A stretch of DNA of 64,000 nt from assembly GCF_028736035.1 (NCBI RefSeq), contig NZ_CP117866.1, positions 7,750,001 to 7,814,000 of the forward strand. Reading direction: 5' to 3'. The DNA comes from Streptomyces sp. T12. GTDB taxonomy: Bacteria; Actinomycetota; Actinomycetes; Streptomycetales; Streptomycetaceae. Position numbers and translations under genes: made by a program. The notes under the pieces were generated by a model that was given only the letters and a program-made list of their open reading frames with translations, ran no database searches and was not told the origin of the DNA. This document shows positions 33,049 to 52,908 of the stretch, piece after piece; the stretch's first letter is position 1; the number at the start of each line of letters is the position of its first letter.

Positions 33049-35886
33049 TCAACCGGAGAAGCCGACGTGCGCGAGCCGCACCGGGCCGCGCAGCCTGAGG
33101 TGGACGTCCCGGACGCCCTCGGCGATGATCTCGGCGCGCTGCGTCGAGTAGTCGTACGGACTCGCATCCGGCGCCTGCGACGTCAGTACGGCGAGCACCG
33201 CGCCCCCGTCCAGCGACACCTCGACCACGCCGTCGCCGGACACGGTCGCCGTCACCGCCGTGACGCCGCCTTCGAAGTCGCAGTCCCGGTAGACCAGTTC
33301 GGCCGACCTGCCCTGCGCCGGCGTCACCGCGTCGCCCGACGCCTTCGTGCGGTCGACGATCGCCACGCCGCTGTGCTCGTCGAAGTCGGCCGCGTCCAGG
33401 CCGCGTCGCAGGACAGGGCGCGGTGCGGCCGCCTCGCCGTCCAGGAGCAGGGTCGTCCGCAGACGGATGTCCTCGCTGGAGGCGCCGGCCAGGATCTCGT
33501 ACGGGCCCGGCTCGCGGCGCCAGGCGCCCCGCGCCACATCCCAGAAGCCGAAGGACGGCAAGGGGACCTCGAAGGTCAGGGTCGACTGCTCGCCGGGTTC
33601 CAGCCGCACCCGGCTGTGCGCCACCAGTTCCCGCCGCGGGCGCGGCACCGTCGGCTCCACCGCGCGCGTGTAGAGCTGGGCGACCTCGTCGGCCGGCACG
33701 TCACCGGTGTTGGTGACCGTGAAGGAGAAGTGCAGCGCGTCGTCCGTCACGCGGGTCTCCAGGTCGGCGTAGGAGAAGGCCGCGTAGGACAGGCCGTGGC
33801 CGAACGGGAACAGCGGGGTTCCCTCGAAGTACAGGTACGTCTGGCGGCCGCCGATCACGTCGTAGTCGAGGAGGTCGGGCAGGTCGGCGTCGTCGGCGTA
33901 CCAGGTCTGCGGGAGGCGGCCGGCGGGGGAGACGTCGCCGGCCAGGACGCGGGCGAGGGCGGTGCCGGCCGCCTGGCCGCCGTGGGAGGTCCAGAGGATC
34001 GCCGGGAGGGCGGCCGGGTCGACGGCGTAGGGGTACGCCGACACCAGGGCCAGCACCGTTTTCGGGTTGGCCGCGCGGGCGGCGCGCAGCAGGCGCTCCT
34101 GATGGGCGGGGAGGGCGAGCGTCGTGCGGTCCTCGGTCTCGCGGCCGTTGATGTGCGGGTCGTTGCCCGCGACCACCAGGACCACGTCCGCCTGTGAGGT
34201 GACCCTGGTCACTGCGTCTTCGGCGCTTTCGACGACGATGAGCTCGAAGATTTCCGGATTCGCTTCGGCAACCCTGACGCCGTCGGCGGCGACTGAGACG
34301 TGGCGACCCGTACCGAGGTGCCGGAGGAGGTGCCCGTTCGCATGGGGTTCCAGGCGGAATGTCTCCTGGACGACCCAGCCTCCGGGCTGGTCGGCGGAGG
34401 CGCGGACACAGCCGTCCTCGGCGACGGAGAGGTAGCGGCCGTCGGGGGCGCGCAGAGTCAGCACGCCCTCGCCCCAGTCGACCAGCGCGAACTCGGTGCC
34501 GGCCGGGTCGGTGGTCAGTGGGGGCAGGTCCGTCCGGCCGGCGAGCAGCGCCGGGTCGAGGGCGCCCTCGGCGCCGCGCACCTCGTCGTCGGCGTCCGCC
34601 TCGGGGACGTGCAGGAAGGTTCCGGCCGAGGTCTTCAGGCGGATGCGGTCGACGCCCTCCGCGAACTCCACCCGCTCCGCGCCGAACCGCTCGTACAGGC
34701 CCTCCAGCGGGGTCGAGCGGTGGATGAGCGTGCCGCTGTACCAGTCGAGCTTGCACTCGTCGGCGAGCAGACCGACCACCGCGAGCCGGGTGCCGGGCGC
34801 GAGCGGCAGCAGGCCACCGCTGTTCTTGAGCAGGACGACCGACTGCTCGGCGGCCTCCTGGGCGAGGGCGCGGTGGGCCGGGGTGTCGAAGTCCGTGGTG
34901 AGCGCGTGCGGGTCGTACTGCGGGTCGAACTCGCCGAGGCGGAAGCGGACCGAGAGCTGGCGGCGGACCGCCGTGTCGATGTCCGACTCGGTCAGCAGGC
35001 CCTGTTCCAGGGCGCCGCGGACCCGTGCGGTGATCTTCGAGCTGTCGGTGCCGTGGTCGGTGAAGCTGTCGACGCCGGCGAGGATCGCGGCCGCCGTGGC
35101 CGCCTCGTGGGTGTCGAAGTAGTGCTCGGAATCGACCAGGTTGGACGGCGCACCCGCGTCCGAGCAGACCAGCAGGTCCTCGTCGGTCCAGGCGCGCAGG
35201 TGCTCGCGCAGATACGGCGAGACGTGGTTGGGGCGGCCGTTGACCAGGTTGTACGCCGGCATCACGCCGGCCGTCGCGCCCGCCTCGACCGTCTCGCGGA
35301 AGGCGCGCAGGTCGTACTCGTGCAGGACGCGCGGGCGGACCGAGGAGGACGTGACGCTGCGGTCCGTCTCGTTGTTGTGAGCCAGCCAGTGCTTGAGGAC
35401 GGGCGCGGTGCGCCAGTACGTCGGGTGCTCGCCGCGCAGGCCACGGGTGTAGGCGGTGGCGATGGCCGAGGTGAGCTTGGGGTCCTCCGAGTAGCCCTCC
35501 TCGTTGCGGCCCCACAGCGGGTGGCGCAGGAGGTTGACGGTGGGGGACCAGACGTTCAGGCCCACGCGGTCGTCGCGGGCGCGCATCGCCCGGACCTCCT
35601 TGGACACCGCCTCGCCGACGCGTCGTACGAGGTCGGTGTTCCAGGTCGCGGCCAGGCCCACCGCCTGCGGGAAGACGGTGGCCGGGCCCATCCAGGCCAC
35701 ACCGTGCAGGGCCTCCTGACCGGTGCGGAACCCGTCGACGCCCAGCCGCTCCACGGCGGGCGCGAACTGGTGCAGGAAGCCGATCTTCTCGTCGAGCGTG
35801 AGCCGCGACAGAAGGTCGTCGATGCGCTTCGCGAACGGCAGTCGCTGATCGCGGAAAGGCGGCGTAGGCGGCGTTTGTGCGGTCAC
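33049..35886 (-). CDS. GH3 beta-glucosidase-type enzyme with beta-trefoil-like insert and CBM6-like C-terminus
   Basis: About 945 residues with no signal peptide, so cytoplasmic. Domain order: GH3 N-terminal barrel (~25-330; nucleophile in LVCSDAGAPSN, Asp223), first half of the GH3 C-terminal domain (EQSVVLLKN), an insert at ~392-533 rich in fascin/beta-trefoil-like turns (DGRYLSVAEDGCV, GTGRHVSVAADGVRV), the rest of the GH3 C-domain (VVLVVAGNDPHINGRETEDR, with the acid/base Glu region), a FnIII-like domain, and a final ~130 residues like CBM6. In the setting of the locus it should remove the backbone glucose from xyloglucan oligomers. GTG 35886 with AAGGGGA seven bases upstream is preferred over ATG 35943, since the extra codons contain the operator palindrome. 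Confidence 0.88.
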   Translation of the reverse strand: MTAQTPPTPPFRDQRLPFAKRIDDLLSRLTLDEKIGFLHQFAPAVERLGVDGFRTGQEALHGVAWMGPATVFPQAVGLAATWNTDLVRRVGEAVSKEVRAMRARDDRVGLNVWSPTVNLLRHPLWGRNEEGYSEDPKLTSAIATAYTRGLRGEHPTYWRTAPVLKHWLAHNNETDRSVTSSSVRPRVLHEYDLRAFRETVEAGATAGVMPAYNLVNGRPNHVSPYLREHLRAWTDEDLLVCSDAGAPSNLVDSEHYFDTHEAATAAAILAGVDSFTDHGTDSSKITARVRGALEQGLLTESDIDTAVRRQLSVRFRLGEFDPQYDPHALTTDFDTPAHRALAQEAAEQSVVLLKNSGGLLPLAPGTRLAVVGLLADECKLDWYSGTLIHRSTPLEGLYERFGAERVEFAEGVDRIRLKTSAGTFLHVPEADADDEVRGAEGALDPALLAGRTDLPPLTTDPAGTEFALVDWGEGVLTLRAPDGRYLSVAEDGCVRASADQPGGWVVQETFRLEPHANGHLLRHLGTGRHVSVAADGVRVAEANPEIFELIVVESAEDAVTRVTSQADVVLVVAGNDPHINGRETEDRTTLALPAHQERLLRAARAANPKTVLALVSAYPYAVDPAALPAILWTSHGGQAAGTALARVLAGDVSPAGRLPQTWYADDADLPDLLDYDVIGGRQTYLYFEGTPLFPFGHGLSYAAFSYADLETRVTDDALHFSFTVTNTGDVPADEVAQLYTRAVEPTVPRPRRELVAHSRVRLEPGEQSTLTFEVPLPSFGFWDVARGAWRREPGPYEILAGASSEDIRLRTTLLLDGEAAAPRPVLRRGLDAADFDEHSGVAIVDRTKASGDAVTPAQGRSAELVYRDCDFEGGVTAVTATVSGDGVVEVSLDGGAVLAVLTSQAPDASPYDYSTQRAEIIAEGVRDVHLRLRGPVRLAHVGFSG

Positions 35887-35922
35887 GTGGGGATCCCCTT
35901 GCGGTGGAGCGGCGAGGCGCTT

Positions 35923-35936
35923 TCGAAGCGCTTCGA
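35923..35936. promoter_or_regulatory. LacI-family operator, GH3 side
   Basis: Perfect 14-bp palindrome TCGAAGCGCTTCGA, 37 bp upstream of the GH3 start. The same core occurs at three other places in the locus, two of them in front of the local lacI-type gene. It overlaps the codons of a longer GH3 start, which argues for the shorter one. Confidence 0.8.
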
Positions 35937-36104
35937 TGCTCATTCGATCCGGGGGTGGGTGTCAAGACACCCCGGCGCAACAACTCCGACTCCTGACCGT
36001 TATTTCAAGCGACACAAGAGAGCGGTCGGATCCTCCACACCCCGGAGGAATCTTGGAAGCGACTCTTGTGCGCCCCCATGCCTTCACTTAACCTCGCAGC
36101 AACA

Positions 36105-36118
36105 TCGAAGCGCTTCGA
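36105..36118. promoter_or_regulatory. LacI-family operator, importer side
   Basis: Perfect 14-bp palindrome TCGAAGCGCTTCGA, identical to the site at 35923, about 140 bp upstream of the sugar-binding protein gene. Likely controls the importer operon. Confidence 0.8.
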
Positions 36119-36258: not shown

Positions 36259-37953
36259 ATGACGCCGAATGCCGCCTCCGCCTCCTCCGGACCCAGCCGG
36301 AGAAGCTTCCTCGCCTCCACGGCGGTCGCCACCGCAGCGGTGGCCGGTGGGATGCCGCTGCTCTCCGCCTGCGGCGGTTCGGACGGGGGTTCGCGCGACG
36401 GGACCACGTCGGGCAAGGACGCGAAGAAGATCCTTCCGGCGTACGCGGCCAGCAACGTGGTGACGCCGGACATCCCGTCCAAGAACGGCTCGTCGATGGG
36501 CTTCACGGCCAAGCTCGACGTCGCCACCCTCAAGACCTCGGTCCCGAAGAAGCTCGGCAAGGGCGGCGAGGTCACCATCATGTCGCCGTTCTGGGGCTCG
36601 CCGCCGAAGCAGAACAACCCCTACTACACGTCGATGAACGACCTGATCGGCGTCGACGTCCAGTGGCGCAACCAGGACGGCAACACCTACGACCAGAAGC
36701 TCGGCGCGGTCCTCGCCTCCAGCGACGTCCCGGACGTGGTCGTCGTCCCCAGCTGGAACATGATGGGCAAGATACCCAGCGCCATCATCAGCAAGTTCGC
36801 CGACCTCGGCCCGTACCTGTCCGGGGACAAGGTCAAGGAGTACCCCAACCTCGCGGCGATCCCCAGCGACGCCTGGCAGCGCTCCATCTTCGGCGGCAAG
36901 CTGATGGGCCTGCCGCAGCCCGCCCCGTCCGTCGCGACCATCGTGCCCCTCTACCGGCAGGACATCTTCGACAAGGAGGGCTACGAAGTCCCGCGGTCCG
37001 CCGACGAGTTCATGGCCCTGTGCAAGGACATCACCAACGCCCGAGCCAAGCGGTGGGCCTGCGGTGACATGAAGTGGACCGCGTTCAACACCTTTGGTGT
37101 GCTCGGGGGCGGGGAGAAGCCGCTCTGGTGGAACCTCGTCGACGGCAAGCTGATCAACCGCATCGAGACCCCGGAGTACCTGGAAGCCATCGAGTGGACG
37201 CGCAAGCTGTTCGCCGCCGGTGTCGTCCACCCCGACTTCAAGCTGGGCAAGAGCCAGGCGACCGACCCCGCCCCCAAGTTCGCCGCCGGCGAGTTCCTGA
37301 TCTGGAACAACAACATCGTCAACTGGTACGGCCAGCAGGCCTCCCAGGCCACCCAGAACCCCGACTTCAAGGTCTGGGGCATGGACATCTGGAACCACGA
37401 CGGCGGTGACCCGACGCTGTACGCCCAGAACCCGGCCGGCATCTTCGCCTTCATCAGCAAGAAGGCCTCCGAGTCCGTCATCCACGACGCGCTGGCGGTC
37501 GCCAACGTCACCGCGGCGCCGTATGGCACCAAGGAGTGGATGATGACCAACTACGGCGTCGAAGGCACGCACTACACGATCAAGGACGGCGTCCCCGTCA
37601 AGAACGACAAGGGCAACAACGAGGTTCTCAACGCCTTTGTCATGGTGGCGAGCCCCGCCGCCACCACCGCCCACCCCGACCTGCCGGACTACACCAAGGC
37701 CATGGTCGAGTGGGAGCAGCGGATGGGCGCCTTCACCAAGAAGTCGTCCTTCTGGGGCCTGCAGATCACCGAGCCCTCCCGCTACACGAACCTCGCCAAC
37801 GACTTCGAGCAGCTCGAGGACGACATCATCCGCGGGCACAAGAAGATCAGCGACATGCAGCAGGCCGTCTCCGACTGGAAGAGCAAGGGCGGCGACAAGC
37901 TGCGCGACTGGTACAAGAAGCTTCTGGACGAGAACGGCTCGGCGGCGAGCTGA
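36259..37953 (+). CDS. extracellular sugar-binding lipoprotein of a CUT1-type ABC importer
   Basis: A 564-residue solute-binding protein of the large LplA-like type. The signal region has SRRSFLAST (twin-arginine) and the lipobox PLLSAC, so it is exported by Tat and lipid-anchored. Downstream, GGEVTIMSPFWGSPPK and later segments give the usual two-lobed binding fold. It is followed by two permeases of the same class. Because the locus encodes extracellular xyloglucanases and cytoplasmic exo-glycosidases, xyloglucan oligosaccharides are the inferred ligand. AAGGG precedes the ATG by nine bases. A LacI-type operator lies upstream. Confidence 0.9.
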   Translation: MTPNAASASSGPSRRSFLASTAVATAAVAGGMPLLSACGGSDGGSRDGTTSGKDAKKILPAYAASNVVTPDIPSKNGSSMGFTAKLDVATLKTSVPKKLGKGGEVTIMSPFWGSPPKQNNPYYTSMNDLIGVDVQWRNQDGNTYDQKLGAVLASSDVPDVVVVPSWNMMGKIPSAIISKFADLGPYLSGDKVKEYPNLAAIPSDAWQRSIFGGKLMGLPQPAPSVATIVPLYRQDIFDKEGYEVPRSADEFMALCKDITNARAKRWACGDMKWTAFNTFGVLGGGEKPLWWNLVDGKLINRIETPEYLEAIEWTRKLFAAGVVHPDFKLGKSQATDPAPKFAAGEFLIWNNNIVNWYGQQASQATQNPDFKVWGMDIWNHDGGDPTLYAQNPAGIFAFISKKASESVIHDALAVANVTAAPYGTKEWMMTNYGVEGTHYTIKDGVPVKNDKGNNEVLNAFVMVASPAATTAHPDLPDYTKAMVEWEQRMGAFTKKSSFWGLQITEPSRYTNLANDFEQLEDDIIRGHKKISDMQQAVSDWKSKGGDKLRDWYKKLLDENGSAAS

Positions 37954-37980: not shown

Positions 37981-39015
37981 GTGTCCCACAGCACGGTGCC
38001 TCGGAGCAGTGCCGAGGCCAGCACGCCGGTGAAGAACCCGGGGGCGTCTGCCGACGTCACCGGGGCCCGCGAGGAACGAGGCTCGGGCAAACTGAGCCTC
38101 GGGCTCAGGTTCAGACGCGACCGCGTCCTGATATTCATGACGCTGCCAGCCATCGTGCTGATCCTGGTCTTCAACTACCTGCCGATCCTCGGCAACGTCG
38201 TCGCCTTCCAGGACTACGACCCCTACATCAGCGACAACGGCATCATCTCCATGCTGAACAGCCCCTTCGTGGGCATGGAGAACTTCCAGCGGATCTTCGA
38301 GGACTCGGCCTTCTGGAACGCCGTCGAGAACACGCTGGTGCTGTTCTTCGTCCAGCTCCTGCTGTTCTTCCCGATCCCGGTCCTGCTCGCACTGCTCATC
38401 AACAGCGTGGTCCGGCCCCGCGTGCGGGCCTTCGCACAGGCCGTGCTCTATCTCCCGCACTTCTTCTCCTGGGTGCTGGTCATCGCCGTCTTCCAGCAGA
38501 TGTTCGGCGGCGCGGGGATGCTCTCCCAGCTGCTCCGGCAGAACGGGTACGACGGCCTCGACATCATGACCAACCCGGACACCTTCCCCTTCCTGATCAC
38601 CGCGCAGAGCGTGTGGAAGGACGCCGGGTGGGGGATCATCGTCTTCCTCGCCGCCCTGGCCTCGGTCAGTCCGGACCTGTACGAGGCCGCCGCGATGGAC
38701 GGCGCCGGACGCTGGCGCCGCATGTGGCACGTCACGCTTCCCGCCCTGCGCCCGGTGATCGCCCTCCTGCTCGTACTGCGTGTCGGCGACGCCCTGACCG
38801 TCGGGTTCGAACAGATCCTGCTGCAACGCGACGGCGTCGGACCGGGCGCGGGGGAGGTCCTCGACACCTTCGTGTGGTGGAACGGCGTGCGCAACCAGGA
38901 CTTCGGCTACGCGGCCGCCGCCGGTCTCGTCAAGGGCGTGGTCAGCATCGGCCTGGTCCTCGCCGCGAACAAGGTGGCCCATCTCATGGGCGAGCAGGGG
39001 GTGTACAAGAAATGA
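37981..39015 (+). CDS. oligosaccharide ABC transporter permease 1 (LplB/UgpA-like)
   Basis: A 344-residue permease with a polar ~45-residue N-terminus and six membrane segments. The EAA loop is YEAAAMDGAGRWRRMWHVTLPAL near residue 240. LVFNYLPILGNVVAFQDYDPY at the first helix is typical of the LplB subgroup that works with large 500-600-residue binding proteins. GTG start with AAGGAGA eight bases upstream. Its stop overlaps the next ATG (ATGA). No ATPase gene is in the locus; in Streptomyces, such CUT1 importers usually share the MsiK ATPase. Confidence 0.9.
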   Translation: MSHSTVPRSSAEASTPVKNPGASADVTGAREERGSGKLSLGLRFRRDRVLIFMTLPAIVLILVFNYLPILGNVVAFQDYDPYISDNGIISMLNSPFVGMENFQRIFEDSAFWNAVENTLVLFFVQLLLFFPIPVLLALLINSVVRPRVRAFAQAVLYLPHFFSWVLVIAVFQQMFGGAGMLSQLLRQNGYDGLDIMTNPDTFPFLITAQSVWKDAGWGIIVFLAALASVSPDLYEAAAMDGAGRWRRMWHVTLPALRPVIALLLVLRVGDALTVGFEQILLQRDGVGPGAGEVLDTFVWWNGVRNQDFGYAAAAGLVKGVVSIGLVLAANKVAHLMGEQGVYKK

Positions 39016-39971
39016 CGTCCGTGATGTGGGAGCCGCGCCAGGACACCGAGCCGGTACAGCAGAAGGCGCCCCGCTGGTGGGCCGCGCCTCCGCGCCCGTC
39101 GTGGGAGGAAAGTCCCTCCAGGGCCGGCCTCGCGGGCAAGGGCATCGCCCTGTCGTTCGCCTGTCTCGCGATCCTCTTCCCGCTGTGGATCGTGATCGTC
39201 ACCAGCCTCTCCTCGCGGAAGACCATCGACGAGGCGGGCGGCCTGGTGATGGTGCCCAAGGGCATCACCTTCATCGCCTACGAGGAGCTGCTCAGCGGCG
39301 GCCAGGTCACCCGCGCCGCGATCATCAGCATCCTCGTCACCCTGGTCGGCACGCTGTTCTCGATGTCGGTGTCCGTCCTGTGCGCCTACGGTCTGTCCCG
39401 CAGCGGGTCCCTCGGCCACCGCTGGATCCTGATGCTGCTGCTGGCGACCATGTTCTTCAGCGCCGGCCTCATCCCCACCTACCTGCTGGTGCAGTCCCTC
39501 GGACTGACGGACACCTATCTCGCGCTGATCCTGCCGAGCGCGATCAGCGTCTTCAATATCCTGGTGCTGCGCGGCTTCTTCATGGGGATCTCGCAGGAAC
39601 TCATCGACAGCGCGCGCATCGACGGCGCCGGGGATCTCCGGATCCTCTGGCGGATCGTCATGCCGCTGTCGCGGGCGGTTCTCGCGGTGATCACGCTGTT
39701 CTACGCCGTCGGGTACTGGAGCGCCTGGTTCAACGCGTCGCTGTATCTGAACCAGCAGGACATGATGCCGTTGCAGAACGTCATGATCCAGCTGGTGCAG
39801 AGGCAGCAGGCGCCGGTCGGTCTGGGCCAGGCCATCAAGACCGGTCAGCTGTCGGGGCTGGCCGTTCAGATGGCGGTCATGGTGATGGCCTTGCTGCCGG
39901 TGGCTGTGCTGTCCCCCTTCGTCCAGAAGCACTTCAAGAAGGGCATGCTCACCGGCGCCGTCAAGGGCTGA
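39012..39971 (+). CDS. oligosaccharide ABC transporter permease 2 (LplC/YtcP-like)
   Basis: A 319-residue permease of six helices. It has the EAA loop IDSARIDGAGDLRILWRIVMPLS near residue 200 and NQQDMMPLQNVMIQLV, a segment typical of YtcP/LplC permeases. The start overlaps the stop of permease 1 (ATGA) and indicates coupled translation. After its stop there is a 154-bp gap with a dispersed repeat and hairpin before the GH74 gene. Confidence 0.9.
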   Translation: MTSVMWEPRQDTEPVQQKAPRWWAAPPRPSWEESPSRAGLAGKGIALSFACLAILFPLWIVIVTSLSSRKTIDEAGGLVMVPKGITFIAYEELLSGGQVTRAAIISILVTLVGTLFSMSVSVLCAYGLSRSGSLGHRWILMLLLATMFFSAGLIPTYLLVQSLGLTDTYLALILPSAISVFNILVLRGFFMGISQELIDSARIDGAGDLRILWRIVMPLSRAVLAVITLFYAVGYWSAWFNASLYLNQQDMMPLQNVMIQLVQRQQAPVGLGQAIKTGQLSGLAVQMAVMVMALLPVAVLSPFVQKHFKKGMLTGAVKG

Positions 39972-40005
39972 TCGGCGCCCACTCGATGGGTGCTTCGGTT
40001 GTTCG

Positions 40006-40087
40006 GCGGCTGCGGGTTGTTTGTGGTTGGTCGCGCCCACGCGGCGGAGCCGCATATCGATAGAGCCCCGCGCCCCTTCGGGGCGCT
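40006..40087 (+). repeat. dispersed intergenic repeat, family B, copy 1, with hairpin
   Basis: About 82 bp starting GCGGCTGCGGGTTGT and containing GCGCCCACGCGGCGGAGCCG, CATATCGAT and the hairpin GCGCCCC-TTC-GGGGCGC (40070-40086). The same blocks occur in reverse orientation at 60071-60180. Placed between importer and GH74 genes, the hairpin could reduce read-through between the two halves of the operon. Confidence 0.75.
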
Positions 40088-44345: not shown

Positions 44346-46552
44346 GCGGACCCGTACACGGCACCTGGGAGCCCGCCCCCGCAACCCGCTGGGAGGACGC
44401 CTTCCTGAGCGGGAACGGCCGACACGGCGTCATGGTGTTCGGAGATCCGAACGCCGACCGGGTCATCGTCAATCACCACACGCTGGTCCGCCCCAACGGC
44501 AGCGAACACGCCCGTCCACCCGCCCTCGCCGCCGAACTCCCGCAGCTTCAGGACCGGTTGCTCGCCGGAGACGTCACGGCGGCCGAGGGCTTCACCGACG
44601 GACGGGAGCTGCAGTGGGTGCAGCCCTTCCATCCCGCTTTCCAGGTACGACTGCGCCGGTCGGCAGCCGAAGGGGAACTCGACGGCTACCGCCGCGAGGT
44701 CGACTTCACCACCGGCGCCTGCACAGCCACTCGCGGCGGCTGGCGGAGCCAGGTCTTCGTCTCCCGCGCGGACGACGTCATCGTCCAGTACGTCACCGAA
44801 CCCGGCCTCACCGCCGACGTGACCCTGGACCACCAACTGCCCGGCGCCCCCTACAACCTGGCGGTCGGACACAGTGCCGTCCTCACCCCCGACGGCGCAC
44901 TCCTCACCCTCCGCGTCCGCTACCTCGGCAGCGACCGCGCGTACACGGGCGTCACGCTCGCCCTGGTCACCGGCGGCAGCACCCGCACCTCCCTGCCGGG
45001 CATGCGTGTCGAGGGCGCCCGCTCGCTGCTCCTCCTCACCCGGGTCCAGCGGCACACCGGCGAGCTGGACGCCCTCGCCGAGGCGCGAGCGCTGCGTGCC
45101 CTGCTCCCCGACGGCGACGAGGACCCGTACGACCGCCTCCTCGCCCGCCACACCGACCTGCACCGCCCGGCCTACCACCGCGTCGGCCTCGACCTCGGCG
45201 CCGACGACAGCGAAAGGGCCCTGCCCGGCTCGGAGTTGGTGAGCCGCCCGAAGAGCCCCGCCCTGCTGGAACGTCTCTTCGCGGCCGGCCGCTACCATCT
45301 CCTCTCCGCCTCCGGCATGCTCCCGCCCCGCCTCACCGGCCTGTGGACCGGCGACTGGGACACGGCGTGGTCTGGCGCGTTCACCACCGACGCCAACGTC
45401 AACCTTCAGACCGCGTCGGCCGCCGCCGCAGCGCTCCCGGAGGTCACCGAGGCCCACGCCGCCCTGATCCACGGCCAGGTCGACCACTGGCGCGACAACG
45501 CCCGCGCGATCTTCGGCATCCGCGGCGTGGTGGCCCCCGCCCACACCGACGGCGAGTCCGGTCACCTCTACCACTTCAGCCGCGAGTACCCCCTCCACCT
45601 GTGGACCGCCGGCGCCGACTGGCTCCTCAAACCCCTCGTCGACCACGACGAGACACGCGGCGACCGCGACCCGCGCACCACCGCCGTCCTCGCCGAAGTG
45701 GCCCGGTTCTACGAGGACTTCCTCACCCGGACCGACAGCGACGGCAACCTGGTCGTCGTCCCCTCCTACTCACCCGAGAACCGCCCGGCGAACGCGAGCT
45801 GGGGCACTCTCAACGCCGCCATGGACCTCTCGGCGGCCCGGCATGCGCTGCTCACGGCGGCCGACTACCACCCGGACACCCCGGAGGCCGACCGCTGGCG
45901 CGCCCTCGCCGACCGCCTCCCGCCGCACCGGATCAACGCCGACGGAGCCCTCGCCGAATGGGCCTGGCCAGGCCTTGAGGACACCTACGACCACCGCCAC
46001 CTCAGCCACCTCTACGGCGTCTGGCCGCTCGACGAGATCACCCCGTACGACACCCCCGACCTCGCCGCGGCCGCCCACCGCGCCCTCGAACTGCGCGGCG
46101 CCGAGAACGACTCCGCGCACGGCCACCTCCACCACGCCCTGATCGCCGCCCGCCTCAGGGACGGCGACCGGGTCGCCCACGCCCTCGACCAGGTGCTGGG
46201 CGGCGACTTCTTCCACGCCTCCCTGATGAGCGCCCACTACCCGAACCGCGACGTCTACAACGCGGACGCCGCGCACACCCTGCCCGCCGTACTGATCGAG
46301 ATGCTCGTGCAGTCGACCCCGGACCGACTGGTCCTGCTGCCCGCGCTGCCGACGGCGTACCCCAGCGGCGAACTGCGCGGAGTGCGCACCCGGTTCGGCT
46401 CCGAGATCGACCTCACCTGGACGCGGGACGGTGCCACTGCCGTCGTCCGGCCGAGCCGTACCCACCGCGTCGAACTCTGGACTTCTTCCGGCACAGAATC
46501 CCTCCACCTGGTTGCCGGAGAAGACCACGTCCTCACCCTGAGGGCGTGGTAG
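44342..46552 (+). CDS. GH95 alpha-L-fucosidase
   Basis: A 736-residue protein of GH95. Near the N-terminus WEDAFLSGNGRHGVMVFGDP is the family opening; TTDANVNLQTAS near residue 350 supplies the two conserved Asn, and VPSYSPENRP near 475 the catalytic Glu. GH95 enzymes invert and release alpha-1,2-L-fucose (some act on alpha-L-galactose). There is no signal peptide, so it acts on imported oligosaccharides; fucosylated xyloglucan side chains fit. The ATG overlaps the GH42 stop (ATGA). The GH12 gene follows after 32 bp. Confidence 0.9.
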   Translation: MSGPVHGTWEPAPATRWEDAFLSGNGRHGVMVFGDPNADRVIVNHHTLVRPNGSEHARPPALAAELPQLQDRLLAGDVTAAEGFTDGRELQWVQPFHPAFQVRLRRSAAEGELDGYRREVDFTTGACTATRGGWRSQVFVSRADDVIVQYVTEPGLTADVTLDHQLPGAPYNLAVGHSAVLTPDGALLTLRVRYLGSDRAYTGVTLALVTGGSTRTSLPGMRVEGARSLLLLTRVQRHTGELDALAEARALRALLPDGDEDPYDRLLARHTDLHRPAYHRVGLDLGADDSERALPGSELVSRPKSPALLERLFAAGRYHLLSASGMLPPRLTGLWTGDWDTAWSGAFTTDANVNLQTASAAAAALPEVTEAHAALIHGQVDHWRDNARAIFGIRGVVAPAHTDGESGHLYHFSREYPLHLWTAGADWLLKPLVDHDETRGDRDPRTTAVLAEVARFYEDFLTRTDSDGNLVVVPSYSPENRPANASWGTLNAAMDLSAARHALLTAADYHPDTPEADRWRALADRLPPHRINADGALAEWAWPGLEDTYDHRHLSHLYGVWPLDEITPYDTPDLAAAAHRALELRGAENDSAHGHLHHALIAARLRDGDRVAHALDQVLGGDFFHASLMSAHYPNRDVYNADAAHTLPAVLIEMLVQSTPDRLVLLPALPTAYPSGELRGVRTRFGSEIDLTWTRDGATAVVRPSRTHRVELWTSSGTESLHLVAGEDHVLTLRAW

Positions 46553-46584: not shown

Positions 46585-47301
46585 ATGGCATCACGTACCT
46601 TGAGCCGGGTCACCAAGGTCCTGCTCGCCCCCGCCCTGGCGCTCGGCGCCACCGTCGGCCTCGCCTCCGCCCCCGCCTCCGCCGCGGTCTGGAACTCCTG
46701 CGACCAGTGGGGCAACACCAGCCTGAACGGCTACACGCTCTACAACAACATCTGGGGCTCCGGCGCCGGCAGCCAGTGCATATGGGCCAACTCCGGCACC
46801 AACTGGGGAGTCTGGGCCAACCACCCCAACACCGGCGGCATCAAGTCCTACCCCAACTCCACGAAGGCGATCAACAAGACGATCGCCTCCCTCGGCTCGC
46901 TCACCAGCAGCTACAACGTCACCGTCCCGTCGGCCGGCGCGTACAACACGTCGTACGACATCTGGGACACCGACCACGACTACGAGATCATGCTCTGGGT
47001 CAACTACAACGGCGCCGTCGGTCCGATCGGCACCTCGCAGGGCAGCGTCAGCCTCGGTGGCCACACCTGGAACGTCTACAAGGGCAACAACGGCGCGAAC
47101 GAGGTCTTCTCGTTCCTGCGGACGTCCGACTCCAGCTCCGGCACCGTGAACATCAAGCCGATCCTCAGCTGGATCGCGGGCACCAAGGGTTGGATGTCCA
47201 GCAACGAGACCATCGGTGACGTCCAGTTCGGCTACGAGATCACCTCGTCGTCCGGCGGGCTCGACTTCAACACCAACAACCTGACCGTCAGCAGCAGCTG
47301 A
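46585..47301 (+). CDS. secreted GH12 endoglucanase/xyloglucanase (first copy)
   Basis: A 238-residue exported enzyme: Sec signal peptide with cleavage at ASA-AVW near residue 33, then a single GH12 jelly-roll domain. The catalytic pair is Glu134 in HDYEIMLWVN (nucleophile) and Glu218 in VQFGYEIT (acid/base). Family 12 covers endo-beta-1,4-glucanases and xyloglucan-specific forms; the surrounding genes favour xyloglucan. No binding module is attached. GGAAGGGA lies five bases before the ATG. It is last in the + strand run of the locus and meets the sulfotransferase gene convergently. Confidence 0.9.
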   Translation: MASRTLSRVTKVLLAPALALGATVGLASAPASAAVWNSCDQWGNTSLNGYTLYNNIWGSGAGSQCIWANSGTNWGVWANHPNTGGIKSYPNSTKAINKTIASLGSLTSSYNVTVPSAGAYNTSYDIWDTDHDYEIMLWVNYNGAVGPIGTSQGSVSLGGHTWNVYKGNNGANEVFSFLRTSDSSSGTVNIKPILSWIAGTKGWMSSNETIGDVQFGYEITSSSGGLDFNTNNLTVSSS

Positions 47302-47337: not shown

Positions 47338-48525
47338 TCAGGTGCGGTCGACCTCGGCCCGCAGTGCGTTGTAGTCGGCGAAGGCGGACTCCACGTCGGC
47401 GCGGGTCAGGCCGTAGCGGGCCAGGTCGTAGCGGTGCGGGCGGGTGCCCTTCGGGCGGGCGACGGCCCCGGGGAGCCGGGCGGCCTCGGCGTCGGTCCAG
47501 CGGGCGCCGACCGCGTCGTAGAGCTTGGGCGCGCCCGTGGCCGGCTCGGCGGCGAGCCAGGCGTACGGGGCGTCCACCAGGGCGTGGGGCGGGATGGCGG
47601 CGCGGGCCGCGAGGCCGCGGGTCATGGCGTGGCTCAGCAGGTCGAGCCAGAGGGTGCCGATGCGGTGCAGGTCGAGGGGACGGGTGCTGACGGCCATGCC
47701 GTGCTCGATCAGGCTGCAGAAGGAGGCCACCACGGTCACCGGGTCGCGGTGGCACCACACGATCGTGGCGTCCGGGAAGACCGTGCGCAGCGCGTCGAGG
47801 TTGCCCAGGTGCATGGGGGACTTGAGGATCCAGCGGCGGCGCGGGCGGCCGTGCTGGAGGACCTGGAACACCTGCTTGAGGTACCGGTAGTCGTCGACGA
47901 AGTCCCGCTCCCGGTACCACGCCGCGTACTCGGGGATCAGCGCCTGCGACAGCGGCATCAGGGCGTGCGGCAGGGCGAAGGTGCACTCCTCCGGGCCCTC
48001 GGCGGCCATCGCGTGGATGTCGCGGAAGCGCGGCGCGAACAGGTTGGTGCCCTGCACCAGCCGACGTCCTGCCGTGACCGCCTTCCGGCGCTGACGGGGC
48101 GGCAACTCCAGGTCGGGCGTGAGCAGTTCCCACAGCAGCGGGCTTCGGTGTGCGGCGGAGAGCGACAGCACGGCGTGTGTGACGGTGGTCGCGGTGCGCG
48201 GCAGGCCCACGACGAACACCGGCTTCTCGATCGGTTCCCGCTCGATCTCGGGATGCCCGGCGATCAACCGACGCACGCGGGCCCGGTTGGCGAGATGCCG
48301 GCGCACGAAGACCTGCGCGGACTGCCAGCCGACCGGGGTCAGGTTCTCGGCCTTCGCCCACCAGCCCAGCAGCACCCGGAAATCGTCGACGAACTGCCGG
48401 TCTCCCGGTGTCTCCCCGGCCTCCACCGCGATCCGGTCGAAGACCCGGTCGTGCTCGCGACGGGAGCCGAAGGTCGGCCGCAGTAGCAGATCGGCCAGGG
48501 TGAGGGCTATCGGAGGCGAGGACAC
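47338..48525 (-). CDS. sulfotransferase family protein
   Basis: A 395-residue protein. FVVGLPRTATTVTH near residue 104 is the 5'-phosphosulfate (PAPS) loop, and RRRWILKSPMHLGNLDAL with IVWCHRDPVTVVASF near 255 forms the 3'-phosphate-binding part. These are the marks of the PAPS-dependent sulfotransferase 3-like family. No signal peptide or membrane segment is clear. The acceptor is unknown. It lies 107 bp downstream of the alpha-xylosidase on the same strand, so it may be transcribed with it, but I know of no sulfation step in xyloglucan use. The start is GTG with no clear ribosome site. Confidence 0.85.
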   Translation of the reverse strand: MSSPPIALTLADLLLRPTFGSRREHDRVFDRIAVEAGETPGDRQFVDDFRVLLGWWAKAENLTPVGWQSAQVFVRRHLANRARVRRLIAGHPEIEREPIEKPVFVVGLPRTATTVTHAVLSLSAAHRSPLLWELLTPDLELPPRQRRKAVTAGRRLVQGTNLFAPRFRDIHAMAAEGPEECTFALPHALMPLSQALIPEYAAWYRERDFVDDYRYLKQVFQVLQHGRPRRRWILKSPMHLGNLDALRTVFPDATIVWCHRDPVTVVASFCSLIEHGMAVSTRPLDLHRIGTLWLDLLSHAMTRGLAARAAIPPHALVDAPYAWLAAEPATGAPKLYDAVGARWTDAEAARLPGAVARPKGTRPHRYDLARYGLTRADVESAFADYNALRAEVDRT

Positions 48526-48632: not shown

Positions 48633-50777
48633 CTACTCCGCTACAGGCAGCCGTGCCCCGTCCCGCAGGAACAGCGGGATGCGGTCCAGCGGGGCGTCGA
48701 CCGTCACGGTCGTACCGCCCTCGTACGTCTCCCCGGTCCACGCGTCCGTCCAGCGCGCCCCCGCCGGGAGGTACGCCGTCCGGGCCGTCGCGCCCGCCGT
48801 CAGCACCGGGGCGACGAGCAGGTCGTGGCCGAAGAGGTAGGCGTCGTCGACCGACCAGGCCGCCTGGTCCTCGGGGAACTCCAGGAACAGCGGGCGCATC
48901 ACCGGCAGGCCCTCCTCATGGGCCTCGCGCATGACATCGAGGACGTACGGCTTCAGGCGCTCGCGCAGTCGCAGGTACCGCTCCAGGATCGCGCCGGCCT
49001 CCTCGCCGTACGACCACACCTCGTTCGGTCCGCCGGTCATCTGCGGGCCGAGCGGCATGCCCGGGTCGCGGAAGCCGTGCAGGCGCATCAGCGGGGACAG
49101 CGCGCCGAACTGGAACCAGCGGACCATGACTTCGCGGTACGCCGGGTCGTCCGGGTCGCCGCCGTGGAAGCCGCCGATGTCGGTGTTCCACCAGGGGATG
49201 CCGGACAGCGCGGTGTTGAGGCCGGCCGCGATCTGGCGGCGCAGGGTCGGGAAGTCGGTGCCGATGTCGCCGGACCACAGGGCGGCGCCGTAGCGCTGGC
49301 TGCCCGCCCAGGCCGAGCGGTTGAGGGTGACGATCTCCTCCTCGCCGCTCGCGCGCAGGCCCTCGTAGAAGGTGCGGGCGTTCTCGGCCGGGTAGATGTT
49401 GCCGACCTCCAGGCCCGGACCCGTCCAGTAGCGCAGGTTCTCCTGGAAGCCCGGCTTCAGCTCCGGCTCGCAGGCGTCCAGCCAGAAGGCCGTGATGCCG
49501 TACTGGTCGAGGTAGTTCTGCTTGACCTTGGACCACACGAACGCGCGCGCGTCGGGGTTGGTGGCGTCGTAGAAGGCCACCTGGACCGTCGACGCCACCT
49601 CCTTGTCGGGCCAGTCGGCGTGTGCCATCGGGCCGTACTGGGTGCCGATGAAGTAGCCGCGCTGCTCCATGACCGGGTGGTTCTCGGAGAGGGGGGAGAC
49701 CGAGGGCCAGACGCTGACCACCAGCTTGATGCCGAGCTCGTCCAGCTCGCGCACCATCGCCGCCGGGTCCGGCCACTCCTTGGGGTCGAACTTCCACTCA
49801 CCCAGGTGGGTCCAGTGGAAGAAGTCGCAGACGATGACGTCGATGGGCAGGCCGCGCCGCTTGTACTCCCGCGCGACGGAGAGGAGTTCGTCCTGCGTGC
49901 GATAGCGCAGCTTGCACTGCCAGAAGCCCGCCGCCCACTCGGGCAGCATCGGCGTACGGCCCGTCACCGCGCTGTAGCGGCGCTGACCGTCGGCCGGGTG
50001 GCCCGCGGTGATCCAGTAGTCGATCTGGCGGGCGGAGTCGGCGACCCACCGGGTGCCGTTGTGCGCGAGCTCCACGCGCCCGATCGCCGGGTTGTTCCAC
50101 AGCAGGGTGTAGCCGCGGCTGGAGGACAGGACCGGGATGCCGACCTCGGCGTTGCGCTGGACCAGGTCCAGGACCAGGCCCTTCTGGTCGAACCGGCCGT
50201 GCTGGTGCTGGCCGAGGCCGTACAGCTTCTCGTCGTCGTACGCGGCGAAGCGCTGCTCCAGGCGGTGGTAGCCGTTGCCCACGGCGGTGTAGAGGCGCGG
50301 TCCCGGCCACCAGAAGTGGGCGCGCTCCTCGGCGAGCACCTCCGTGCCGTCCTCGGTGCGCAGGAAGCGGATCAGGCCCTCGGCGTCGACCTCGACGGTC
50401 AGCGCGCCGACGGTCAGCACCCCCAGCCCGTCCTCGATCTTGACCGTCGACTCGGTCGCCGGGGCGGACTCCAGGAGCGCGCCCGGCAGTCCGTCGAGGA
50501 CCGGGCCGCCGAGCCGGGCACGCACCCGGACCGCGTCCGGCCCCCACGGCTCGACGCGCAGGGTCTCCTGGCGGCCGCTCCACTCCAGCGCACCGTCCCG
50601 CTCACGGAACGTGCCGACGGTCGGGGACGACTGCGCGAGGCTGACCGTGCCCGGCTGGGGCTGGTTTTCGGCAGACTGCTGTGTCTTCCCGGGGGACGAC
50701 CCCCGGACCCCCGGCACGGACGCAGGTCCGCCGGGATGACCGGCGCGAACATTGCGAGGCAAACCTGAGTGATTCAC
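48633..50777 (-). CDS. GH31 alpha-xylosidase-type enzyme
   Basis: A 714-residue GH31 enzyme without signal peptide. The nucleophile Asp is in ITAFWLDACEPE and the acid/base Asp in AALWSGDIGTDF; WNNPAIGRVE and VCDFFHWTHLGEW are further GH31 segments. In this locus alpha-xylosidase activity on the non-reducing xylosyl units of xyloglucan oligomers is expected. The first ~48 residues (rich in Gly, Pro and Ser) are unlike GH31 and are encoded by repeat-like DNA; no internal start is available, and AGGAG precedes the GTG by seven bases, so the extension is probably translated. The gene follows lacI on the same strand. Confidence 0.88.
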   Translation of the reverse strand: MNHSGLPRNVRAGHPGGPASVPGVRGSSPGKTQQSAENQPQPGTVSLAQSSPTVGTFRERDGALEWSGRQETLRVEPWGPDAVRVRARLGGPVLDGLPGALLESAPATESTVKIEDGLGVLTVGALTVEVDAEGLIRFLRTEDGTEVLAEERAHFWWPGPRLYTAVGNGYHRLEQRFAAYDDEKLYGLGQHQHGRFDQKGLVLDLVQRNAEVGIPVLSSSRGYTLLWNNPAIGRVELAHNGTRWVADSARQIDYWITAGHPADGQRRYSAVTGRTPMLPEWAAGFWQCKLRYRTQDELLSVAREYKRRGLPIDVIVCDFFHWTHLGEWKFDPKEWPDPAAMVRELDELGIKLVVSVWPSVSPLSENHPVMEQRGYFIGTQYGPMAHADWPDKEVASTVQVAFYDATNPDARAFVWSKVKQNYLDQYGITAFWLDACEPELKPGFQENLRYWTGPGLEVGNIYPAENARTFYEGLRASGEEEIVTLNRSAWAGSQRYGAALWSGDIGTDFPTLRRQIAAGLNTALSGIPWWNTDIGGFHGGDPDDPAYREVMVRWFQFGALSPLMRLHGFRDPGMPLGPQMTGGPNEVWSYGEEAGAILERYLRLRERLKPYVLDVMREAHEEGLPVMRPLFLEFPEDQAAWSVDDAYLFGHDLLVAPVLTAGATARTAYLPAGARWTDAWTGETYEGGTTVTVDAPLDRIPLFLRDGARLPVAE

Positions 50778-50857: not shown

Positions 50858-51874
50858 TCAGTGGGCGGCGGACGGCGCCGGGCCCGTGCTCGCCCGGTCC
50901 GTCAACTCGGGTGCGATCAGCACGACTTCGTCGCTCCCGCGCCCCTCGAGCTTGGCGACCAGCTGCTGCACGGCATGCCGGCCCATCTCCTGCGCGGGGA
51001 TGGAGACGGACGTCAGCCGCACCGAGGCCTGGGTGGCGACCTGGTCGGGGCAGATGCCGACCACCGACACGTCCTCGGGCACGGCGCGGCCCTGCTGGCG
51101 CAGCAGGGCGAGCAGTGGCTCGACAGCCGATTCGTTCTGCACGACGAACCCGGTGGTGCTCGGGCGCTCGTCGAGGATGCGGGCGAGGGTGACGGCCATC
51201 GCGTCGTACCCGCCCTCACAGGGCCGGTGCAGCAGCCGCATCCCCAGCTCCTGGGAACGCAGCCGGAGTCCGTCCAGCGTGCGCTCGGCGAAACCGGTGT
51301 GCCGCTCGTAGACGGCCGGGGCCTCGCCTATGACAGCGATGTCCCGGTGCCCCAGCATCGCCAGATGCTCCACACACAGCGCGCCGGTCGCCTTGAAGTC
51401 GAGGTCCACGCAGGTCAGCCCGGAGGTGTCGGCCGGCAGACCGATCAGCACGGACGGCTGGTCGGTGCCGCGCAGCAGCGGCAGCCGCTCGTCGTCCAGC
51501 TGGACGTCCATCAGGATCATCGCGTCGGCCAGCCCGCTGCCGGTGACCCGGCGCACGGCGTCGGGGCCCTCCTCGCCGGTCAGCAGCAGCACGTCGTATC
51601 CGTACGTCCGGGCCGTGGTGGCCACCGCGATGGCGATCTCCATCATCACCGGCACGTACATGTCGGTGCGCAGCGGGATCATCAGCGCGATGATGTTCGA
51701 CTTGCTGCTGGCCAGGGCGCGGGCGCCCGCGTTCGGGTGGTAGCCGAGTTCGCGGATGCTCTGCTCGACCCGATGCCGGGTGGTCGTGGAGATGGACCGC
51801 TTGCCACTGAGGACATAGCTCACCGTGCTCGCCGAGACTCCGGCGTGCTGGGCGACCTCGGCGAGGGTGACCAT
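50858..51874 (-). CDS. LacI family transcriptional repressor
   Basis: A 338-residue regulator: N-terminal LacI helix-turn-helix and hinge helix (VTLAEVAQHAGVSASTVSYVLSGKRSIS ... NAGARALASSKSN), then a periplasmic-binding-protein-like ligand domain. It sits between the GH31 gene, which follows on the same strand, and the divergent second GH12 gene. Palindromes of the form expected for LacI proteins (GAAGCGCTTC core) lie 17 and 107 bp upstream of its start and in the other promoter region of the locus, so autoregulation and control of the whole locus are inferred. ATG 51874 is preferred (GGAG six bases upstream); a TTG at 51886 would add four residues. Confidence 0.92.
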   Translation of the reverse strand: MVTLAEVAQHAGVSASTVSYVLSGKRSISTTTRHRVEQSIRELGYHPNAGARALASSKSNIIALMIPLRTDMYVPVMMEIAIAVATTARTYGYDVLLLTGEEGPDAVRRVTGSGLADAMILMDVQLDDERLPLLRGTDQPSVLIGLPADTSGLTCVDLDFKATGALCVEHLAMLGHRDIAVIGEAPAVYERHTGFAERTLDGLRLRSQELGMRLLHRPCEGGYDAMAVTLARILDERPSTTGFVVQNESAVEPLLALLRQQGRAVPEDVSVVGICPDQVATQASVRLTSVSIPAQEMGRHAVQQLVAKLEGRGSDEVVLIAPELTDRASTGPAPSAAH

Positions 51875-51890
51875 CCAGCTCTCCAAGCTT

Positions 51891-51907
51891 TGTGAAGCGC
51901 TTCGACA
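51891..51907. promoter_or_regulatory. LacI-family operator next to the repressor start
   Basis: TGTGAAGCGCTTCGACA, a near-perfect 17-bp palindrome (core GAAGCGCTTC), begins 17 bp upstream of the repressor ATG. A bound repressor here would block its own transcription. Confidence 0.8.
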
Positions 51908-51980: not shown

Positions 51981-51998
51981 TGTCGAAGCGCTTCGACA
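51981..51998. promoter_or_regulatory. LacI-family operator, best copy
   Basis: TGTCGAAGCGCTTCGACA is a perfect 18-bp palindrome, the longest of the four in the locus. It lies in the 224-bp divergent region, 101 bp before the second GH12 gene and 91 bp (centre to centre) from the operator next to the repressor. Confidence 0.85.
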
Positions 51999-52098
51999 GC
52001 TTTTCTCATACGAGGGTGTCGGCGCCGTGGGGGCAACCTCCCGGCGGTCGGCGGCCACTGAGAAGGCGTACCCGCACCGTCCCCCGGAAGGACCCCCG

Positions 52099-52908
52099 AT
52101 GCAACACCGCCGCCCCCGCCTGTCCAAGAAGGCGAAGACCCTCGTCTCAGCCGCGATCGCCCTCGCGGCCGCCGCCGGTGTCACCGTCGCCCAGGCGGAC
52201 GAGTCCGGCAAGAAGTGCACGGCCTTCGACACGATCACGCTCGGCAAGTACTACGTGAACAACAACCTCTGGAACGAGGGCAAGTACACCGGCACCCAAT
52301 GCGTCTGGGACAACTCCCAGTCGGGCTCGACGATCTCCTGGGGCACCGACTACAGCCTGGCCAACAGCAGCACCGGCAAGGACTACGACGTGAAGTCGTA
52401 CGCGTCCGCCGTCCTCGGCTGGCACTGGGGCTGGAAGGTCGACAAGGCGACCACCGGCCTGCCTGTCCGCGTCGGCGACCGCAAGCCGGTGCGGACGAGC
52501 TGGGAGTTCTCGGTCAGCTCCAACCCCGGCACCATGAACGTCGCCTACGACCTGTGGCTGCACACCAAGAACACCGCGGACTGGCAGGACCAGCCCACCG
52601 ACGAGATCATGGTCTGGCTCAACCGCCAGGGCGGCGCAGGCCCGCTGGGCACCAAGTACGGCAGCGTCAGCCTGGGCGGCGCGATGTGGGACATCTACGA
52701 GGGCGACATCGGCTGGAAGGTCCACTCGTTCGTCCGCCGCACCAACACCACCAAGGCCACGCTCAACCTGGACGACTTCACCCAGGCACTCGTCCGGCGC
52801 AATCTGCTCGGCAACGACAAGTACGTCTCCGGCATCGAGGCCGGCACCGAGGTCTTCAAGGGCACGGGCCGCCTGGACACGAAGGCGTATTCCGTCAACA
52901 TCGGCTGA
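52099..52908 (+). CDS. secreted GH12 endoglucanase/xyloglucanase (second copy)
   Basis: A 269-residue protein with a signal peptide (KKAKTLVSAAIALAAAAG, cleavage near AQA-DE at residue 33). The GH12 domain has the nucleophile Glu169 in TDEIMVWLN and the acid/base in GIEAGTEVFKG (Glu251 most likely). It shares the YGSVSLGGAMWDIY strand with the first GH12 but otherwise differs much, so it is an older paralogue or separately acquired. It transcribes divergently from lacI with operators between. GGAAGGA lies seven bases before the ATG. No binding module. Confidence 0.87.
   Translation: MQHRRPRLSKKAKTLVSAAIALAAAAGVTVAQADESGKKCTAFDTITLGKYYVNNNLWNEGKYTGTQCVWDNSQSGSTISWGTDYSLANSSTGKDYDVKSYASAVLGWHWGWKVDKATTGLPVRVGDRKPVRTSWEFSVSSNPGTMNVAYDLWLHTKNTADWQDQPTDEIMVWLNRQGGAGPLGTKYGSVSLGGAMWDIYEGDIGWKVHSFVRRTNTTKATLNLDDFTQALVRRNLLGNDKYVSGIEAGTEVFKGTGRLDTKAYSVNIG

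What the first reader, a model, noticed from the sequence alone, without database searches (positions are those of the whole stretch)
33049..52908. Complete candidate xyloglucan-utilisation locus with its own repressor
Within 20 kb lie all steps to take fucogalacto-xyloglucan to sugars: exported GH74 and two exported GH12 enzymes, a Tat-lipoprotein with two CUT1 permeases, and signal-less GH31, GH42, GH95 and GH3 enzymes, plus a LacI regulator. Exported versus cytoplasmic location, read from signal peptides, divides exactly as a cut-outside, import, trim-inside scheme requires. Absence of an ATPase gene fits use of the shared MsiK ATPase (established for Streptomyces CUT1 systems). Such complete loci are best known from Bacteroidetes and Cellvibrio; here importer, trimming enzymes and regulator form one Gram-positive unit.
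Basis: partly seen in the sequence, partly recalled or inferred. Interest (0 to 1): 0.85.

Follow-up and report, generated by a model that had tools for sequence, protein, structure and literature searches.

The report
Streptomyces xyloglucan locus with phased operators
A soil bacterium carries a gene cluster that looks built to cut, import and digest the plant-wall polymer xyloglucan, and the two DNA switches for its repressor have mostly kept whole-helical-turn spacing in related strains, which suggests that the repressor loops the DNA.

Summary
Xyloglucan is well supported: GH31 is nearest to alpha-xylosidases, GH74 to xyloglucanases, and the SBP model has the Cluster G fold, as has A. bescii's XXXG-binder. 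The scheme is published: Ruminiclostridium (2016) and Anaerocellum (2025) import xyloglucan oligosaccharides by ABC transporter for cytoplasmic digestion; their reported regulators are AraC-type two-component systems. New here is the control. An operator, TCGAAGCGCTTCGA, flanks the divergent GH3/SBP promoters, sits at lacI, and precedes a second xyloglucan-like island's genes and a GH5-CBM46 gene. All 98 SBP-positive of 199 genomes have this LacI and at least two sites; sites track the LacI (110 of 111 versus 11 of 88). In 142 distinct sequences operator spacing forms an ~11-bp comb (132 within 2 bp; 25 of 28 small independent contrasts; control distances do not). Fresh sequences gave 38 of 46, just under my stated 85 percent. 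I read this as helically phased repression looping, unproven; promoter-promoter geometry is the main rival.

The parts
33049..35886 (-). GH3 beta-glucosidase-like enzyme with Fn3 and CBM6, no signal peptide seen (ORF open to ATG 35943)
   Evidence: Pfam; PDB relatives include beta-glucosidases, beta-xylosidases and isoprimeverose-producing enzymes; start by RBS and gene call; 52 of 52 loci
35923..35936 (.). Operator 1, TCGAAGCGCTTCGA, at the GH3 promoter
   Evidence: paired with operator 2 in 166 loci (at most one mismatch per site)
35959..35966 (-). Putative -35 of the GH3 promoter (CTTGACAC on the minus strand)
   Evidence: gTGTCAAG, partly conserved in 142 sequences; promoter role inferred
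36065..36094 (+). Putative SBP promoter, CTTGTGC-17-TAACCT
   Evidence: partly conserved in 142 sequences; promoter role inferred
36105..36118 (.). Operator 2, TCGAAGCGCTTCGA, just downstream of the putative SBP promoter, 182 bp from operator 1
36259..37953 (+). Solute-binding protein, Tat lipoprotein, Cluster G-like fold
   Evidence: Pfam; AlphaFold2 mean pLDDT 73.5; best folds AlgQ2, AlgQ1, FusA
37981..39015 (+). CUT1 permease 1
   Evidence: Pfam; best NCBIfam match UgpA, below its cut-off
39012..39971 (+). CUT1 permease 2
   Evidence: Pfam; best NCBIfam match UgpE, below its cut-off
40126..42351 (+). GH74 endo-xyloglucanase-like enzyme, Tat signal
   Evidence: Pfam; PDB 4lgn 497 bits, 6p2o Xyloglucanase 493 bits
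42351..44345 (+). GH42 beta-galactosidase, no signal peptide seen
   Evidence: Pfam; PDB; 48 of 52 loci
44342..46552 (+). GH95 alpha-L-fucosidase-like enzyme, no signal peptide seen
   Evidence: Pfam; nearest PDB entry 7kmq; 37 of 52 loci
46585..47301 (+). GH12 endoglucanase or xyloglucanase, Sec-type signal
   Evidence: Pfam; 40 of 52 loci
47338..48525 (-). Sulfotransferase (Sulfotransfer_3); probable passenger
   Evidence: Pfam; 11 of 52 loci
48633..50777 (-). GH31 alpha-xylosidase, no signal peptide seen (possible start 50717)
   Evidence: Pfam; nearest PDB alpha-xylosidase MeXyl31 680 bits, next alpha-xylosidase 352 bits; 24 of 52 loci
50858..51874 (-). LacI-family repressor (called LacI1 here)
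   Evidence: Pfam; at 70 percent identity or more in 98 of 98 SBP-positive genomes
51892..51905 (.). Operator 3 (GTGAAGCGCTTCGA, two mismatches)
51983..51996 (.). Operator 4, TCGAAGCGCTTCGA, between lacI and the second GH12 gene
52099..52908 (+). GH12 (second), Sec-type signal; rarely in the locus elsewhere (2 of 52)
   Evidence: Pfam

Best explanation
This is a xyloglucan uptake-and-digestion unit held off by its own LacI-family repressor. Exported GH74 and GH12 enzymes cut the polymer outside; the lipoprotein SBP and the two CUT1 permeases import oligosaccharides, driven by an ATPase encoded elsewhere; cytoplasmic GH95, GH42, GH31 and GH3 remove fucose, galactose, xylose and glucose. LacI1 binds TCGAAGCGCTTCGA at the divergent GH3/SBP promoters, at its own promoter, before GH3 and SBP genes of a second xyloglucan-like island and before a GH5-CBM_X2-CBM46 gene; an imported or trimmed oligosaccharide probably releases it. 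Shown here: gene content, synteny, operator copies and their co-occurrence with LacI1, and operator spacing in ~11-bp steps. Inferred: substrate, enzyme order, inducer, repression, and (about 55 percent) that LacI1 dimers on operators 1 and 2 close a DNA loop holding both divergent promoters, which is why spacing changes mostly by whole helical turns.
Against: No expression, binding or growth data. Operators 1 and 2 each keep a fixed place at their putative promoter, so the comb could equally reflect promoter-promoter geometry. Off-comb spacings exist: 10 of 142 and 8 of 46, with 176, 186, 188 and 200 among them; the fresh set missed my stated 85 percent mark, at 83 percent, its kinship was not corrected, and alone it hardly fixes the period (vector strength 0.57 at 11.0, 0.46 at 13.0). 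Seven larger independent contrasts (45-82 bp) fit less well, and at 10.9 instead of 11.1 bp the contrast counts are 23 of 28 against 14 of 36 and 10 of 29. The lacI operator pair has another helical phase. LacI1 lacks the C-terminal tail of E. coli LacI, so a loop would be of a weaker dimer-dimer kind. GH74 is in 32, GH95 in 37 and GH31 in 24 of 52 loci, so the locus is often incomplete. A second LacI (54 percent identical) stands beside the same operator. Of the 11 genomic sites two have no xyloglucan-type target.
Confidence: 0.82

Rival explanations
1. The spacing comb is real but reflects something other than a repressor loop: helical register between the two divergent promoters (supercoiling coupling, or a factor bound between them).
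For: Operator-promoter distances look fixed on both sides, so spacing alone cannot tell the two apart; a further conserved block (about GAGGAATCTTGG) lies upstream of the putative SBP -35 and could be another protein's site.
Against: Operator pairs at helical-step distances are a reported sign of cooperative LacI-family binding, there at 22 and 32 bp (PMC4052901 section 9); the middle of the intersite region is otherwise little conserved.
Confidence: 0.33
2. The sites belong mainly to the paralogous regulator LacI2 next to the YicI-type GH31, or are shared by both.
For: LacI2 is 54 percent identical, starts with a very similar helix-turn-helix, and the same 14-mer stands before YicI-GH31, transporter or LacI2 genes in several genomes.
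Against: Sites follow LacI1: 110 of 111 genomes with it, 11 of 88 without; LacI1 has an operator pair upstream in 53 loci and goes with the locus to other genomic places.
Confidence: 0.12
3. The locus serves another glycan (mixed-linkage glucan, cellodextrins or a galactan) and only incidentally xyloglucan.
For: GH42, GH3 and GH12 occur in many systems (general knowledge); GH74 and GH31 are missing from many of the loci, though I did not check whether they lie elsewhere in those genomes.
Against: GH74 plus alpha-xylosidase-type GH31 plus a Cluster G-like SBP together point to xyloglucan; the same operator precedes GH3 and SBP paralogues beside GH74 genes and a GH5-CBM_X2-CBM46 gene.
Confidence: 0.08

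Closest known systems
Ruminiclostridium cellulolyticum xyloglucan cluster (Ccel_2451-2458), PMC4780118 (abstract and passages seen)
   Same: SBP plus two permeases import xyloglucan oligosaccharides; signal-less GH42, GH31 and GH3 trim them; a GH74 enzyme acts outside; related clusters elsewhere carry alpha-fucosidase genes (Figure 12 legend)
   Different: There a two-component system with an AraC-like regulator lies in the cluster (called XygS/XygR, a positive regulator, in a reference title seen), and extracellular enzymes are cellulosomal; here a LacI-family regulator and Tat/Sec-exported GH74 and GH12
Anaerocellum bescii Athe_2052-2054 importer, PMC12710961 (abstract, introduction, first of two parts of the results, discussion read)
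   Same: Large Cluster G SBP, two CUT1 permeases, GH31 in the same locus, no ATPase nearby
   Different: GH42 and the putative fucosidase lie outside that locus; another paper predicts an AraC-type regulator, AxuRS, for its alpha-xyloside transporter axuABC (PMC8579813, passages)
Bacteroidetes XyGUL (B. ovatus; as described in PMC12710961)
   Same: One locus for the steps of xyloglucan use
   Different: TonB-dependent uptake and periplasmic trimming there; ABC import and cytoplasmic trimming here
CelR and related cellobiose systems of actinobacteria, PMC3377646 (passages seen)
   Same: ABC importer, intracellular beta-glucosidase, LacI regulator, palindrome with a GCGC centre
   Different: Other operator letters (one related site is quoted as AGGGAGCGCTCTCT); no GH31/GH74/GH95 unit in the passages seen, though one xyloglucanase is said to be under CelR in one organism
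SCO5692 LacI regulon of Streptomycetaceae, PMC4052901 (one passage seen on it)
   Same: A Streptomyces LacI regulon said to have changed by loss of regulated genes, like the LacI1-only loci here
   Different: Orthology with LacI1 rests on my recall that dxr is SCO5694; not tested
LacI/GalR repression loops (E. coli lac; gal recalled)
   Same: Operator pair whose repression follows a period of about 11 bp in vivo
   Different: Here the evidence is evolutionary spacing, mostly 158-204 bp, around divergent promoters, not an assay

Membership tests
Gram-positive xyloglucan-oligosaccharide ABC utilisation locus (R. cellulolyticum type) | Large SBP of Cluster G fold with two CUT1 permeases | tested here: met
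   Cluster G is stated for Athe_2052, not for the R. cellulolyticum SBP, in what I read
Gram-positive xyloglucan-oligosaccharide ABC utilisation locus (R. cellulolyticum type) | Signal-less GH31, GH42 and GH3 encoded beside the importer | tested here: met
   in orthologous loci GH31 only 24 of 52
Gram-positive xyloglucan-oligosaccharide ABC utilisation locus (R. cellulolyticum type) | Two-component system with AraC-like regulator in the cluster | tested here: not met
   LacI regulator instead; filed as a variant, not as that exact type
Gram-positive xyloglucan-oligosaccharide ABC utilisation locus (R. cellulolyticum type) | SBP binds XXXG/XLLG with nanomolar affinity | not testable with these tools
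   needs protein
Bacteroidetes XyGUL | SusC/SusD-like proteins | tested here: not met
   no such family among the locus genes scanned
LacI/GalR repressors | LacI helix-turn-helix plus periplasmic-binding-like domain | tested here: met
   PF00356 and PF13377
LacI/GalR repressors | Even palindromic operator with central CG | tested here: met
   TCGAAGCGCTTCGA; rule from PMC4052901 section 9
E. coli LacI-type tetrameric looper | C-terminal tetramerisation stretch | tested here: not met
   LacI1 has 338 aa and aligns to residue 329 of a 360-residue LacI chain
GH31 alpha-xylosidases | Nearest solved sequences are alpha-xylosidases | tested here: met
   activity not testable
MsiK-powered CUT1 importers | Shared ATPase elsewhere in the genome | tested here: inconclusive
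   UgpC-type ATPase above cut-off at G000:C1:4851385; link to this importer not shown

The most novel reading that the evidence does not exclude
LacI1 represses the unit by a DNA loop closed over both divergent promoters, and selection has kept its two operators in helical register while their distance drifted by whole turns across the genus: a natural in vivo measure of the helical repeat (about 10.7-11.1 bp) in Streptomyces, made by a repressor without the tetramerisation tail.
Probability: 0.55. Interest if true: 0.68.

Novelty: new variant of a known kind. Interest (0 to 1): 0.56.

Why it matters
It gives about half of the sampled Streptomyces genomes (98 of 199) a testable xyloglucan system with a named operator, and predicts a wider regulon. 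The phased operator spacing, if it means looping, would be an evolutionary record of DNA-loop mechanics in a high-GC Gram-positive, testable by simple insertions.

Tried and rejected
Taking the 39026-40063 ORF as permease 2: wrong frame, replaced. Sulfotransferase as part of the unit: 11 of 52 loci, treated as passenger. All 11 genomic sites as regulatory: the one inside a dapA-like gene (2371581) recurs in the coding sequence of three other genomes, L267, L273, L274, and is probably conserved coding sequence; the site at 3987795 has no clear target. One helical rule for all operator pairs: the lacI pair has another phase. GH95 in the unit as a new feature: dropped, since the R. cellulolyticum paper's Figure 12 legend shows alpha-fucosidase genes in related clusters. 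Finding the A. bescii SBP in the PDB copy: it was not among the rows shown by a sequence search, a profile search or two fold comparisons (the fold lists show 50 rows), which does not exclude kinship. A paper on a Streptomyces xyloglucan importer under a LacI regulator: none seen in the listings, 88 of one open-access library (one search listed 30 of 459). Distances from the operators to the SBP start as alternative combs: best vector strength 0.34 and 0.26, against 0.78.
Full report
THE GENES. The window is G000:C1:7750001-7814000 of an 11.46 Mb genome in two contigs. Pfam places GH3 with Fn3 and CBM6, SBP, permease, GH74-type repeats, GH42 and GH95, GH12 twice, sulfotransferase, GH31 and LacI, and the second permease in frame 39012-39971. 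To the left lie a PucR-type regulator and an aldehyde dehydrogenase, to the right an acyl-CoA dehydrogenase (ACAD), dxr, an M50 peptidase, gcpE and a class II tRNA synthetase.

HOW COMMON. A close SBP is in 98 of 199 sampled Streptomyces genomes: 97 with E at or below 1e-150 (47 percent identity or more) and one (G143) with two contig-edge pieces of 68-70 percent. In 52 fetched 20-kb loci chosen for the SBP, at 40 percent identity or more, GH3 and both permeases are in 52, GH42 48, LacI 46, GH12a 40, GH95 37, GH74 32, ACAD 25, GH31 24, sulfotransferase 11, second GH12 2 (at 50 percent GH42 is 47 and GH74 30). Some loci run past the fetched stretch, so the right-hand genes are lower bounds. The unit with its LacI occurs in several genomic places. 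In a set of 293 genomes of the order, 11 genomes of another family and 3 of other genera in the family matched only through distant SBPs (33-38 percent identity where listed).

THE OPERATOR. TCGAAGCGCTTCGA occurs exactly three times in the window, with a two-mismatch copy beside lacI. With up to three mismatches the window has 9 matches where shuffles give 3.8 on average, so it is the exact copies that carry the signal. The whole genome has 11 exact sites and none of the reversed control. Outside the window they lie before a GH3 paralogue and (twice) before an SBP paralogue in a second island with GH31, GH127, GH27, acetyl esterase, GH12 and two GH74; near a CE2 esterase gene, with GH74 and GH12 genes in the same 20-kb stretch; before a GH5-CBM_X2-CBM46 gene; before a YicI-type GH31 followed by LacI2; inside a dapA-like gene; and at one place without a clear target (dapA, LacI2 and the GH12 at 1.03 Mb named from their first residues or later matches, not by Pfam). 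Over 199 genomes two or more sites are in 98 of 98 SBP-positive and 5 of 101 SBP-negative genomes; at least one site is in 110 of 111 genomes with LacI1 and 11 of 88 without. The reversed control occurs in 30 of 199, 5 of them SBP-positive. Kinship inflates the Fisher values, so I quote the counts. Of the 13 genomes with LacI1 but no close SBP I fetched 11 loci: in 9 LacI1 lies between the aldehyde dehydrogenase and ACAD genes, and in 7 of these 9 no gene of the unit other than LacI1 was found by tblastn; L281 keeps GH3 and GH31, L280 a GH12 (unassigned genes there were not identified). This fits loss of the unit with the regulator left behind, or LacI1 being older there; ACAD may then be a target. 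Twenty sites fetched from other genomes again lie at GH5-CBM_X2-CBM46, GDSL-esterase and YicI/transporter/LacI2 genes, but 3 of 20 in dapA and some at unassigned genes.

THE SPACING. Operators 1 and 2 flank both putative divergent promoters. In 113 loci (98 distinct intersite sequences) the distances fell into steps of about 11 bp. Over 97 of these the vector strength is 0.78 at 11.0-11.1 bp; for the distances from operator 2 and operator 1 to the SBP start it is 0.18 and 0.22 at 11.0, at best 0.34 and 0.26. With named genomes added, 166 loci had exactly two sites, 142 distinct; 132 of 142 lie within 2 bp of 160+11k, an anchor chosen on these data, the rest being 100, 109, 109, 112, 123, 168, 168, 179, 190, 223. 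On a FastTree of the SBPs 35 contrasts sharing no branch differ by 4 bp or more; 28 are of 4-40 bp and 25 of these lie within 2 bp of a multiple of 11.1 (23 at 10.9); for the two control distances it is 6 of 36 and 8 of 29 at 11.1 (14 of 36 and 10 of 29 at 10.9). Seven larger contrasts, 45-82 bp, fit less well. Best comb repeat 11.0; cluster regression 10.65-10.89. I wrote down a forecast of 85 percent before fetching new sequences; the result was 38 of 46 distinct sequences, 83 percent, chance 45 percent. The forecast was narrowly missed, 176, 186, 188 and 200 are off-comb, kinship was not corrected there, and that set alone hardly fixes the period (0.57 at 11.0, 0.46 at 13.0). Phasing is a preference, not a rule. 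Passages seen give about 11 bp per turn for E. coli loops in vivo (11.08 and 11.60 in one table; about 11 in another paper). The lacI operator pair is at 87-92 bp in 44 of 53 loci; nine departures tend to whole turns (p 0.009, not corrected for kinship), but the phase differs from that of the GH3/SBP pair.

MECHANISM. I hold repression by LacI1 at these sites as likely (about 0.9), xyloglucan as substrate (about 0.85), looping as somewhat more likely than not (0.55). LacI1 lacks the LacI tail, so a loop would need dimer-dimer contact, as recalled for GalR. The main rival for the comb is promoter-to-promoter geometry.

KNOWN OR NEW. The import-and-trim scheme is published, related clusters with alpha-fucosidase genes included. 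The regulators reported for the two published systems are AraC-type two-component systems: in the R. cellulolyticum cluster (XygS/XygR in a reference title) and, by prediction, AxuRS for A. bescii axuABC (passages). A LacI repressor with its own operator regulon for this in Streptomyces was not seen in my searches (listed under Tried and rejected). Ravcheev and co-workers report helical-step distances of 22 and 32 bp between LacI-family sites (section 9) and name an SCO5692 regulon that changed by gene loss; SCO5692 may be LacI1, by recall only.

Noticed in passing
L020/L021 (G000:C1:672000-709999): Second xyloglucan-like island in the same genome: SBP, two permeases, two GH74, GH3, GH31, GH12, GH127, GH27, acetyl esterase, with three exact copies of the operator.
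   Followed up: partly
window 47338-48525: Sulfotransferase gene between GH12 and GH31, found in 11 of 52 orthologous loci; role unknown.
   Followed up: partly
L280-L288: Genomes that kept LacI1 and operator copies beside the ACAD gene but lack most or all of the xyloglucan unit; what LacI1 regulates there is open.
   Followed up: partly
L023 near 7582; L267, L273, L274: The operator 14-mer recurs inside the coding sequence of a dapA-like gene before an IlvD-like gene; probably conserved coding, perhaps regulatory.
   Followed up: partly
window 35819-35832: Third, two-mismatch copy (TCGATGCGCTTCGC) inside GH3; a like copy lies about 93-105 bp from operator 1 in many relatives.
   Followed up: no
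upstream of window 36065: Conserved block around GAGGAATCTTGG before the putative SBP -35 in many relatives: possible activator site.
   Followed up: no
L025 11672-15020; L142; L264; L266: YicI-type GH31, with LacI2 and in some genomes its own transporter, at the same operator: likely a related alpha-xyloside system.
   Followed up: partly
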